Assembly: GCA_009838035.1 (NCBI GenBank)
Contig: VXSK01000003.1
Location: 145,661-209,660, forward strand
DNA from: Gammaproteobacteria bacterium
GTDB lineage: Bacteria; Pseudomonadota; Gammaproteobacteria; Steroidobacterales; Foliamicaceae
Length of the DNA: 64,000 nt
Direction: 5' to 3'
Shown: positions 34,342 to 38,850 of the stretch, piece after piece
Position numbering within the stretch: position 1 is the first letter of the stretch
Layout: each line of letters begins with the position of its first letter
Translations under genes and position numbers: made by a program
Notes under the pieces: model-generated
Seen by the model: only the letters and a program-made list of their open reading frames with translations
Database searches by the model: none
What the model was told of the DNA's origin: nothing

Positions 34342-34432
34342 TCAATACGAGCCCGATTTGTCCCGCTGAACGATGGAATTCTCTGACCAAAGCCACATTG
34401 AACGTGTCCGCGACGCGCTTCATGATCGCGCC
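34342..34432. repeat. Imperfect direct repeat, right copy (5' end of the intact SIR2 gene)
   Basis: Partner of the relic at 31675-31766. It includes 31 bases upstream of the SIR2 ATG, so upstream control sequence was duplicated along with the first codons. The segment between the two copies contains exactly the retron RNA, the RT-TOPRIM gene and the 94-aa ORF. Confidence 0.85.
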
Positions 34433-37400
34433 CAAGGCGCTGTCGTAATGATCGGGTCGGGGTTCAGTGCAAACGCGGTAAGCATTCGATCGTCCGCAAT
34501 AGCGCCGCCTACATGGAAAGAACTCGCTGCGGGCATGCTCCCGCAGTTGTATCCCCCAAGCAATGGGCGGAATGACAGCCCAGCTGCCAATGAAGCTTCC
34601 ACAAGAGACGTTGTCAGACTGGCGCAGGAATTTGAGGCGGCCTTTGGCAGACCCGCCCTGCACAGGCACTTGCGCGCGAAGATTCGCGACGGGGACTTCG
34701 TGCCGGGAGATGCGCACGTGCAGCTTCTCAGGCTGCCATGGCGGGATGTGTTCACAACCAATTGGGACACTCTTTTGGAGCGGGCTGCTCCTTCCATTGT
34801 TGAACACCATTTCAGCCCTGTGCGGAGCACACAAGAGATTCCGCTCGCGACCCGGCCACGCATCGTAAAGCTACACGGATCGGTGGATGCACGATTTCCA
34901 CTCATCTGCACTGAAGAGGATTACCGCACTTACCCGGCGTTGTTCGCGCCCTTTGTTAACACCGTGCAGCAGGCCATGATGGAGAACCTGTTAGTGCTGA
35001 TCGGGTTCTCCGGCGACGATCCTAATTTTCTGCATTGGTCCGGGTGGGTTCGGGACAACCTCGGGGATTCGGCGCCCAAGATATATCTGGCCGGATGGCT
35101 GGAGTTGCTGCCTCACCGCCGCCGCATGCTCGAAAGCCGCAACATCGTGCCGATCGATCTCGCCGGACATCCGCAGGCAGGCGAATGGCGCAAACATCCG
35201 CGGCACCTGCGGCACGCTTACGCTACCGAATGGATTCTGCATTCGCTGAAGTACGGGCAACCGTATGACATATACAACTGGCCCACCACACCAAAGTGGG
35301 CAGGCGAGGAGATTCCAGAGCACCTCGAACCGATGCCGACAAAGGCCATCAGTATTCCGAAAGTGGAACCCACGCAGGATCCTGACGACAGAGAATCGCC
35401 CGAAGGCAAGCTTGATGCAGTTCGAGCACTGATTGACGCTTGGAACTACAACAGAACGCAAACATACCCGGGATGGCTGAGCGCCCCGTCGCGTGTCCGA
35501 GGAACAATCAGAAGTGCGGGGAAAGGCGCGCGAGATCACATCGATTCCGTCGTTGGAGTCTTGCCTCAAATGGATGCGGAAGGGCGTTTACGAGCCTTGC
35601 GCGAGTTAATTTGGCGCTTGGAAATAGTGCTTGCACCCATCTCCGAGCTGGAAGAAAAAGCCTCGAAGCTTGTGTCGGCCGCTCGCGAAGTTCTTGAGCA
35701 ATTTGATTGCCATCGCCAAGAAATTGACGGCATGGCGGTACCCGAAGCCGATTGGACGGCAATTGCGGAATCCTGGATTGCCGTGAACATGACGCTGGCT
35801 ACGGCAGCGCGATTTCGATTCGACGAGGACGAGTTCAACGAGCGCCTATCGGCTGCGTCGTGGTTTAAGGACGGCAATCCGGACATTGAACACCACATTC
35901 AGCATGAGAGATGTCTATGGTCGGTCTTTGCGCTGGACTTTGAGTCATTGGAGAAATTGCTCGCGAAGTGGCGAACGGAAGATTGCGACCCCGCGTGGAT
36001 GATGCGCAAGGCTGCCCTGCAATACGAGATCAGTCTCGACAACGAAGCGAAAGAATTGAATACCCGGGCTCTGCACGAAGCGAGGAGCGTTCCCGATAGT
36101 GATACCGATGTAGGCCCTAAATCTCGGGAAGCTTGGGCTCTCGTATGCGCCGGGGATTCTTTGGATTGGGAAGAATACTGGGCAGCGCAGAAGGAAGCGC
36201 AGAAGAGATGGGCTGAATTGACGAGCGTGCATTGCAATGCGCCGTACGAATTGCAGCATATAACCCAAGCCATCAAGAGCGAGGGCAAGCTCCAAAAGGG
36301 CCCTCACTTCGACTTGGATAGGGAATGGAAGGAGGGTTGGTCGATTTCTCGAGCAGATTTCGATCGCTGGGTGGCGTCGCACCGGGCAGTTCGTTTTTTC
36401 GAAATACACGCCTTGCCGCCCCGTGTGGGGATTCGGTTGGTTTCAGCGAACGGCCTGGAACTCGCTGCCCGGGAACTGTGGCAGTACGAACAGGAACTCG
36501 CGGCGAGACTTGTCTTGCGGGCAGCCAACTATGAAACCCGGGGAACACTGAATTATCTGCTTTCGCGCGCTCGCGTGGCGACGATCCCCGACGATGCTGT
36601 GGGGAGACTGGCCGAGGACTGCATGCAGGCAATCGATTTCATCCTGCCGCGCATCGCCGCCGAGAGGAGCCTTCGGCAAGATCATTGGCGGCAGCGGCTA
36701 CTGGTGTGCATGGAAGCTTTATCACGCTTCGTGCTGCGGCTGGAAGCAGACAAGATCGATGCAGTCCTCACCAAAGCACTGAATTGGTATGCGAACCAGG
36801 ACGTTGCTGCGACGATGCAGATCGCAGGTCCAATGTACAACCTACTTGCGCGGTCGTGGGAGGCTTTGCCAAAGACGCGCCGAAGAAGACGCATTCTGGA
36901 TCTCTTCGAGAGGCCAATTGTCGGTCTGGATGGAATTGAGGCGGGTTTCCTACATGCTGATGGCACAAGGTCGTTCGTAAAAGACTATCCGGACCCATGC
37001 GACGCGTTGCGGCGCGGCAGGCGTCCGAGAATACGGCGAACGGCTCCTAACCGCCCCCGACTGAAAGATGTCTTTAGATTGCTCACTCGCGGCATGAGAG
37101 GCAGTACGGAGGCGCGCCGTCGAGCCGCCAACAGGATAAGTGCGCTAATGGAGGTCGTAAATCCAACTGCCGAGGAACGCTCGCAGATTGCTTACGCACT
37201 TTGGGGCGACGATTTTGACAGCAAAGAGGGGCTTCCTTCCGGTACTGACATGTTCGACTGGGCGTTTCTCGTGATGCCCGAACCAAAGCGAGGCCTAGCC
37301 GCGGAACGATTTCGGGCCAAATGGTTTGGCTCGGGTCAGCAGAAGGAAAACTCGCAGCGCGAATCCGGAGAGATTCTCCACCATGTTGGACGTGCACTTG

Positions 37401-38224: not shown

Positions 38225-38238
38225 CGGAAGGAGTACAC

Positions 38239-38850
38239 ATGACAAGTACAAGTAGGTGGGTTCCATCGCTCCATGAGGACTTGGAGAGTCCAGAAGCGAT
38301 TAAGCGGTATGCGAAACGTTATTCGGCGTTTGATCTCGAAAAAGACTCATGGATCGAAAGTGTGATCAGCGAAGCGCGCAATAGAACTCCACGACATTTG
38401 ACTCGATTCGATCTCGCATGCCTTGGGCGCTGGAAGATGAGCCACCAGAACAAGGACAAGATCAAGAGCAATCGAAACGGACGTGTCGAGCGATGGTCTG
38501 CATCTTCCTTTTCGGCGAATACAGACGAAGAACGCATGGCGCACATACGAGAATTGGAAGGCGTCGGGCTGGCGGTAGCGAGCGCCTTCCTGCATTTCGC
38601 GTTTCCCCGTGACCACTACCCAATCATCGACTTTCGAGCGGTACGTTCGCTGGGAAAAGAGACAGGGAATTATGGAGACTCAGACTGGCCTGCTTTTCTC
38701 AAAGAATGCCGTTGCCTCAGGAAACGATTCAAAGTGGATATGCGCACCTTGGACCGCGCACTGTGGCAGTTCGACTTGGAGAGGGATTTCTGTCGGCAAA
38801 TCGCGGAGGATGCCAAGGAACTCTCACGAGGCGACCGCAACTCCTTCTGA
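38239..38850 (+). CDS. HhH-domain protein partner of the SIR2 gene
   Basis: 203 aa, ATG start with a strong GGAAGGAG eight bases upstream, 14 bases after the SIR2 stop. Residues about 110-135 read LEGVGLAVASAFLHFAFPRDHYPIIDFRAVRSLG, the helix-hairpin-helix pattern of DNA-glycosylase-like folds (G-V-G, then ASAxL, then Y-P-I-x-D-x-R-A). The catalytic Lys or 4Fe-4S cysteines of the Nth/MutY class are absent, so it is more likely a DNA- or nucleic-acid-binding module than an active glycosylase. Operon structure suggests that it works with the SIR2 protein, perhaps as a sensor or regulator. I know of no characterised SIR2 system with this partner. Confidence 0.6.
   Translation: MTSTSRWVPSLHEDLESPEAIKRYAKRYSAFDLEKDSWIESVISEARNRTPRHLTRFDLACLGRWKMSHQNKDKIKSNRNGRVERWSASSFSANTDEERMAHIRELEGVGLAVASAFLHFAFPRDHYPIIDFRAVRSLGKETGNYGDSDWPAFLKECRCLRKRFKVDMRTLDRALWQFDLERDFCRQIAEDAKELSRGDRNSF

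What the first reader, a model, noticed from the sequence alone, without database searches (positions are those of the whole stretch)
34373..38850. SIR2 protein of 1283 aa paired with an HhH-fold protein
The large SIR2 protein has all NAD-binding motifs, but its 950-residue helical C-terminus and a coupled 203-aa protein with a glycosylase-like helix-hairpin-helix are unusual. The partner lacks an obvious catalytic Lys or iron-sulfur cluster, so it may sense DNA ends or modified phage DNA rather than cut it. This could be a two-component variant of defence-associated sirtuins.
Basis: partly seen in the sequence, partly recalled or inferred. Interest (0 to 1): 0.6.

Follow-up and report, generated by a model that had tools for sequence, protein, structure and literature searches.

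The report
Solo DSR2-type sirtuin beside glycosylase-like protein
The large protein is a divergent member of a known anti-phage family (DSR2, which destroys the cell's NAD+), and the small gene behind it encodes a DNA-glycosylase-like protein found in many bacteria without that sirtuin, so the two look like island neighbours rather than a two-part system.

Summary
Both genes are real: a 1283-aa SIR2 protein (34373-38224) and, 14 bp downstream with its own ribosome-binding site, a 203-aa helix-hairpin-helix protein (38239-38850), in a low-GC defence island. The SIR2 protein is not a new architecture. Over residues 15-1262 it matches the DSR2 family, keeps the catalytic Asn/His (N130, H168), and its helical C-terminus matches DSR2 cryo-EM structures by local fold. 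It stays below NCBI's equivalog cut-off, so it is a divergent DSR2. The small protein folds confidently (pLDDT 93) like OGG2 8-oxoguanine glycosylases. It keeps the catalytic Asp and the base-binding Asp/Trp but lacks the catalytic Lys, as do nearly all of about 80 relatives. The 'two-component' idea fails its own test. No DSR2 or SIR2 gene lies near any of 81 HhH relatives, no HhH gene lies near any of 19 DSR2 relatives, and six DSR2 genomes searched whole have no HhH family member. Best reading: a stand-alone DSR2-type NADase next to an independent island gene, possibly a lysine-less glycosylase. The residual novelty is that this uncurated OGG2-like family often sits beside defence genes. 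That is suggestive only, because no genome-background control was run.

The parts
34373..38224 (+). Divergent DSR2-family SIR2 protein, 1283 aa (N-terminal SIR2 NADase domain about residues 10-300, then a helical middle/C-terminal region)
   Evidence: PADLOC Dsr2, residues 15-1262, E 6.6e-152; NF041819, 544 bits, cut-off 1400
34760..34762 (+). N130 codon, equivalent of B. subtilis DSR2 N133
   Evidence: conserved in at least 10 of 11 relatives; N133 needed for full NADase activity, PMC10981675
34874..34876 (+). H168 codon, equivalent of B. subtilis DSR2 H171
38226..38233 (+). GGAAGGAG ribosome-binding site of the HhH gene, directly after the SIR2 stop codon
   Evidence: sequence
38239..38850 (+). 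OGG2-like helix-hairpin-helix protein, 203 aa, without the catalytic Lys
   Evidence: pLDDT 93.2; top folds M. jannaschii OGG2; profile hits OGG2
38524..38601 (+). Helix-hairpin-helix motif (residues 96-121), containing G108; catalytic Lys position is A112
38629..38631 (+). D131, equivalent of the HhH-GPD catalytic Asp
   Evidence: D in 79 of 84 family rows
38752..38766 (+). D172-R-A-L-W176, equivalent of OGG2 base-binding Asp194/Trp198
   Evidence: D 82 of 84, W 83 of 84; PMC3397491

Best explanation
34373-38224 encodes a self-sufficient, divergent DSR2-type defence protein. Its long C-terminal helical region senses a phage component made late in infection (a tail-tube protein in the studied B. 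subtilis DSR2), which switches on the SIR2 domain; the domain then hydrolyses NAD+ and the infected cell stops before phage release. The HhH protein at 38239-38850 is a separate island gene, co-transcribed by position but functionally independent. It has an OGG2-like fold that can grip a flipped base with D172 and W176. With D131 but no Lys, it most likely acts as a monofunctional DNA glycosylase on a modified or damaged base, or only senses such a base. Shown here: homology, conserved residues, fold, and lack of linkage between the two families. Inferred: NADase activity, the trigger, and any glycosylase activity or substrate.
For: DSR2 profile covers residues 15-1262 and 21-1261. N130 and H168 conserved. 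Each of the top 43 PDB fold matches is a DSR2 chain aligned over 1100 or more columns, and the SIR2 part alone reaches TM 0.75-0.79. Nineteen DSR2 relatives (6 genomes, 5 plasmids, 8 viral contigs) lack an HhH gene within the flanks seen. Eighty-one HhH genes in 80 loci show no DSR2 and no SIR2 ORF in 1.1 Mb of flank and no widely recurrent neighbour. The six other DSR2-bearing genomes hold no HhH family member when searched whole. HhH fold and residues.
Against: The two genes are only 14 bp apart with an RBS, so they are probably co-expressed here. The window's HhH protein is the longest branch in its family tree (best relatives 36-40% identity), so a specialised DSR2-linked sub-branch not yet sampled cannot be excluded. 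Sequence profiles reach the solved B. subtilis DSR2 only through the SIR2 domain; the C-terminal match rests on a moderate-confidence model (pLDDT 67.6, overall TM about 0.2-0.28). The trigger may therefore differ from a tail-tube protein.
Confidence: 0.8

Rival explanations
1. Two-component DSR2: the HhH protein binds DNA ends or modified phage DNA and activates, or restrains, the SIR2 NADase.
For: Same strand, 14-bp gap with an RBS; HhH protein predicted to bind DNA or a base; the HhH copy here is unusually divergent, as would fit specialisation.
Against: No second instance of the pair in 19 DSR2 loci or 81 HhH genes; six other DSR2 genomes lack the HhH family altogether; characterised DSR2 is described as a single protein triggered by a phage protein.
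Confidence: 0.07
2. The HhH protein is itself a stand-alone anti-phage gene: a lysine-less OGG2-like glycosylase that removes modified bases from phage DNA, comparable in function to Brig1 and Brig3, which belong to a different (uracil-DNA-glycosylase) superfamily.
For: Base-binding Asp/Trp and catalytic Asp kept, Lys lost as in monofunctional enzymes. Several relatives sit directly beside defence genes: Mrr type IV restriction (L029, L036, L074, assigned through the BLAST cluster and the tallies), type IIG restriction-modification (L034), a DrmD/BrxH-like helicase (L026), Cas10d (L058), PDC-S11 plus AAA/protease (L019). Brig1 and Brig3 set the precedent.
Against: Other relatives sit among housekeeping genes. 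The distant-ORF control from the same contigs also hits many defence models (165 against 209), so the association is not quantified against genome background. No substrate evidence.
Confidence: 0.25
3. The HhH protein is an ordinary base-excision-repair enzyme of the OGG2 group for 8-oxoguanine or another damaged base, carried in the island by chance.
For: OGG2 is the closest fold and profile.
Against: The catalytic Lys is missing in 83 of 84 family rows. The chain-end Lys used by OGG2 to tell 8-oxoG from G is not kept: tails after the Trp vary in length, 27 residues here, and only 2 of 84 have a nine-residue tail ending in Lys. Patchy occurrence: 3 of 399 genomes of the phylum.
Confidence: 0.25

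Closest known systems
DSR2 (defence-associated sirtuin 2; PADLOC PDLC02184, NCBIfam NF041819)
   Same: N-terminal SIR2 with catalytic Asn/His, about 900-residue helical remainder, full-length profile match, single large gene in defence islands
   Different: 544 bits against an equivalog cut-off of 1400; 23-36% identity to the relatives found; 1283 aa against 1005 aa for the solved B. subtilis DSR2; trigger unknown
ThsA (Thoeris) SIR2 domain
   Same: SIR2 NADase domain similar in sequence (phmmer E 1e-7)
   Different: Solved ThsA chains are about 480 aa and match only in the SIR2 domain; no TIR-type partner seen in the window annotation
OGG2 8-oxoguanine DNA glycosylases (M. jannaschii, S. solfataricus, T. 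maritima)
   Same: Fold, catalytic Asp, base-binding Asp/Trp pair with the same spacing
   Different: No catalytic Lys; no chain-end Lys; about 15% identity; sequence-profile match only over the C-terminal half
Brig1 / Brig3 anti-phage DNA glycosylases
   Same: Possible functional analogy only: small glycosylase among defence genes
   Different: Uracil-DNA-glycosylase superfamily, a different fold

Membership tests
DSR2 | SIR2 domain with catalytic Asn and His | tested here: met
   N130, H168 conserved; SIR2_2 E 1.3e-19
DSR2 | Full-length match to the DSR2 profile, including middle and C-terminal regions | tested here: met
   Residues 15-1262 of 1283, E 6.6e-152
DSR2 | NCBIfam equivalog score of at least 1400 bits | tested here: not met
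   544.2 bits: family relative by profile, not an equivalog, so the same function is not claimed
DSR2 | C-terminal sensor fold as in solved DSR2 | tested here: inconclusive
   Local-fold hits over 1100+ columns, but overall TM 0.2-0.28 and model pLDDT 67.6; no sequence-profile match beyond SIR2
DSR2 | NAD+ depletion triggered by phage tail-tube protein | not testable with these tools
   Needs experiment
Two-component DSR variant (with HhH partner) | Partner gene recurs beside DSR2 in other genomes | tested here: not met
   0 of 19 DSR2 loci, 0 of 81 HhH genes; 0 of 6 other DSR2 genomes
Two-component DSR variant (with HhH partner) | Physical interface between the two proteins | not testable with these tools
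   No complex prediction available
OGG2 / HhH-GPD glycosylase | Helix-hairpin-helix fold | tested here: met
OGG2 / HhH-GPD glycosylase | Catalytic Asp | tested here: met
   D131; D in 79 of 84
OGG2 / HhH-GPD glycosylase | Catalytic Lys (bifunctional glycosylase/lyase) | tested here: not met
   A112; P in 64 of 84, K in 1
OGG2 / HhH-GPD glycosylase | Chain-end Lys that recognises 8-oxoG | tested here: not met
   27-residue tail ending in F here; role from PMC3397491
Pfam PF21790 (OGG-like) | Score above gathering threshold | tested here: not met
   17.7 bits against 27; 0 of 71 family members match any Pfam family at E 1e-3

The most novel reading that the evidence does not exclude
The HhH protein belongs to an uncurated, widespread family of lysine-less OGG2-like glycosylases that acts as an independent anti-phage gene against modified phage DNA, the HhH-superfamily counterpart of Brig1; in this island it may act alongside DSR2 as a second layer.
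Probability: 0.22. Interest if true: 0.6.

Novelty: new member of a known kind. Interest (0 to 1): 0.3.

Why it matters
It removes a proposed two-component sirtuin system from consideration. It also draws attention to an OGG2-like family with about 80 members here and no good match in Pfam, NCBIfam or PADLOC, whose conserved residues and frequent defence neighbours make a glycosylase-based defence role directly testable.

Tried and rejected
HhH as a conserved DSR2 partner: rejected after reciprocal neighbourhood searches. A recurrent partner for the HhH family: none found; among likely defence neighbours the most frequent is Mrr-type restriction, in 3 loci. HhH in viral contigs: two scans found nothing; in the phage collection only haloarchaeal viruses HHPV3/4. 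Sigma-factor-like hits for residues 154-193 in the PDB: weak (E 0.12 or worse) and superseded by the OGG2 match. Defence-neighbour enrichment: a control using ORFs more than 7 kb away in the same contigs gave 165 PADLOC models against 209, which does not discriminate, since both sets may lie in the same islands and the tool counts models, not proteins. Integration site at tRNA-Ser: no direct repeat of the tRNA 3' end in the window, and no integrase by Pfam among the ORFs tested near the left edge. Paper searches for a published SIR2-glycosylase pair or an HhH-GPD phage-defence protein found none (open-licence papers only).

Full report
OBSERVATION. Both ORFs are present as described. The SIR2 gene ends with TAG at 38222-38224; a strong ribosome-binding site (GGAAGGAG, 38226-38233) precedes the ATG of the second gene at 38239, so co-transcription is likely. 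The genes lie in a stretch of about 17 kb with GC mostly 0.48-0.59, against 0.62-0.71 on most of the flanks, ending at a tRNA-Ser. Other island genes are a PglX/type IIG-like methyltransferase (28582-31515), a retron-Ec67-type reverse transcriptase with Toprim (32019-33797) and a DUF4365-TPR protein (38873-41029).

THE SIR2 PROTEIN. It matches the PADLOC DSR2 profile over residues 15-1262 (E 6.6e-152) and NCBIfam's DSR2 model over 21-1261 (544 bits). The latter is well below the equivalog cut-off of 1400, so it is a divergent member. The SIR2 motifs are intact and, among eleven aligned proteins, N130 and H168 are conserved; they correspond to N133 and H171 of B. subtilis DSR2, where mutation lowers NADase activity (PMC10981675). 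A model of residues 1-1200 from eight sequences is only moderately confident (pLDDT 67.6). Even so, each of the 43 best PDB fold matches is a DSR2 chain aligned over 1100 or more columns, and the SIR2 domain alone gives TM 0.75-0.79. Overall TM is low (0.2-0.28), and a sequence profile reaches solved DSR2 only through the SIR2 domain. Whether this protein senses a tail-tube protein therefore remains unproven.

THE HhH PROTEIN. One database scan with a three-sequence alignment returned 80 loci encoding relatives, mostly 170-210 residues long, from Poribacteria, Planctomycetota, Chloroflexota, Acidobacteriota, Thermodesulfobacteriota, haloarchaea and others. With 71 aligned sequences the fold is predicted with pLDDT 93.2 and pTM 0.87. 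The best PDB folds are the OGG2 8-oxoguanine glycosylases of M. jannaschii, S. solfataricus and T. maritima (probability 0.99-1.00, though E is only 0.006-0.02 and TM about 0.43). Independently, a profile of the family finds OGG2 chains by sequence (E 0.003). In that alignment D131 matches the catalytic Asp, and D172-x-x-x-W176 matches OGG2 Asp194/Trp198, which contact the flipped base (PMC3397491). Of 84 aligned family rows D131 is kept in 79, D172 in 82 and W176 in 83. The catalytic Lys is replaced: A112 here, Pro in 64 of 84, Lys in only one. The chain-end Lys with which OGG2 recognises 8-oxoG is also not kept. The protein is therefore OGG2-like but not an OGG2. The remaining residues fit a monofunctional glycosylase or a base-binding sensor. 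No Pfam family matches any of the 71 members at E 1e-3, and NCBIfam and PADLOC each match one member weakly.

ARE THEY PARTNERS? Tested from both sides. (a) Around 81 HhH genes (1.1 Mb of flank; 42 genes with at least 4 kb on both sides, 58 with at least 1.5 kb) no DSR2 is found by tblastn and no SIR2 domain by a profile built from DSR2 proteins. No neighbour recurs in more than five loci. (b) Around 19 DSR2-family relatives (six genomes, five plasmids, eight viral contigs) no HhH family member is found in the flanks. (c) The six other DSR2-bearing genomes contain no member of the HhH family anywhere; two have only short weak hits in ORFs of 364 and 397 aa. In the phylum sample, DSR2 occurs in 7 of 399 genomes and the HhH family in 3 of 399, sharing only the window's own genome. 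The caveat is that the window's HhH protein is on the longest branch of its family and no close relative has been sampled, so a private pairing in this lineage cannot be excluded.

WHAT THE HhH GENE MAY DO. Several relatives lie directly beside defence genes: Mrr-type restriction enzymes (three loci, assigned through a BLAST cluster and family tallies), a type IIG restriction enzyme, a DrmD/BrxH-like helicase, Cas10d, and PDC-S11 next to an AAA/protease gene. Others lie among housekeeping genes. A control with ORFs more than 7 kb away on the same contigs also hit many defence models, so the association is suggestive, not measured. DNA glycosylases can be anti-phage (Brig1, Brig3), but those are uracil-DNA-glycosylase-superfamily proteins.

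VERDICT. Observation confirmed; 'defence sirtuin' correct but already a known family; 'two-component' not supported. The remaining point of interest is the OGG2-like family itself.

Noticed in passing
window 31675-31769 and 34342-34435: A 95-bp direct repeat (83% identical): the first copy is a degenerate remnant of the DSR2 gene's upstream region, ATG and about 20 codons with a one-base insertion, lying just upstream of the retron reverse transcriptase. It suggests an older, decayed DSR2-like gene or a duplication around the retron module.
   Followed up: partly
window 32019-33797: Retron Ec67-family reverse transcriptase with Toprim (NF038237 678.7 bits, above the 450 cut-off; PADLOC RT-Toprim E 9e-215). 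No msr-msd RNA was recognised by Rfam at gathering thresholds.
   Followed up: no
window 33939-34235: 98-aa ORF between the retron and DSR2 with no convincing family match; unknown function.
   Followed up: no
window 38873-41029 (-): DUF4365 (PDC-M02A-like) region followed by TPR repeats, convergent with the HhH gene; possible further defence protein.
   Followed up: no
window 41822-42358 and 42355-42705: Two overlapping small genes next to the tRNA-Ser in the lowest-GC part of the island (0.446), no convincing family matches; possible two-gene unit.
   Followed up: no
L004 4001-4477 (HHPV4) and L003 8001-8363: Relatives of the HhH protein in haloarchaeal pleomorphic viruses HHPV3/4 and on a Deinococcus plasmid next to a RecA gene; the annotated HHPV4 start looks too far downstream.
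   Followed up: partly
L029, L036, L074: HhH relatives directly adjacent to what appear to be Mrr-like type IV restriction genes on the same strand.
   Followed up: partly
L099 2866-6741: A DSR2 relative whose reading frame is split into two ORFs by in-frame stops (one TGA, one TAG): a pseudogene or assembly error.
   Followed up: no
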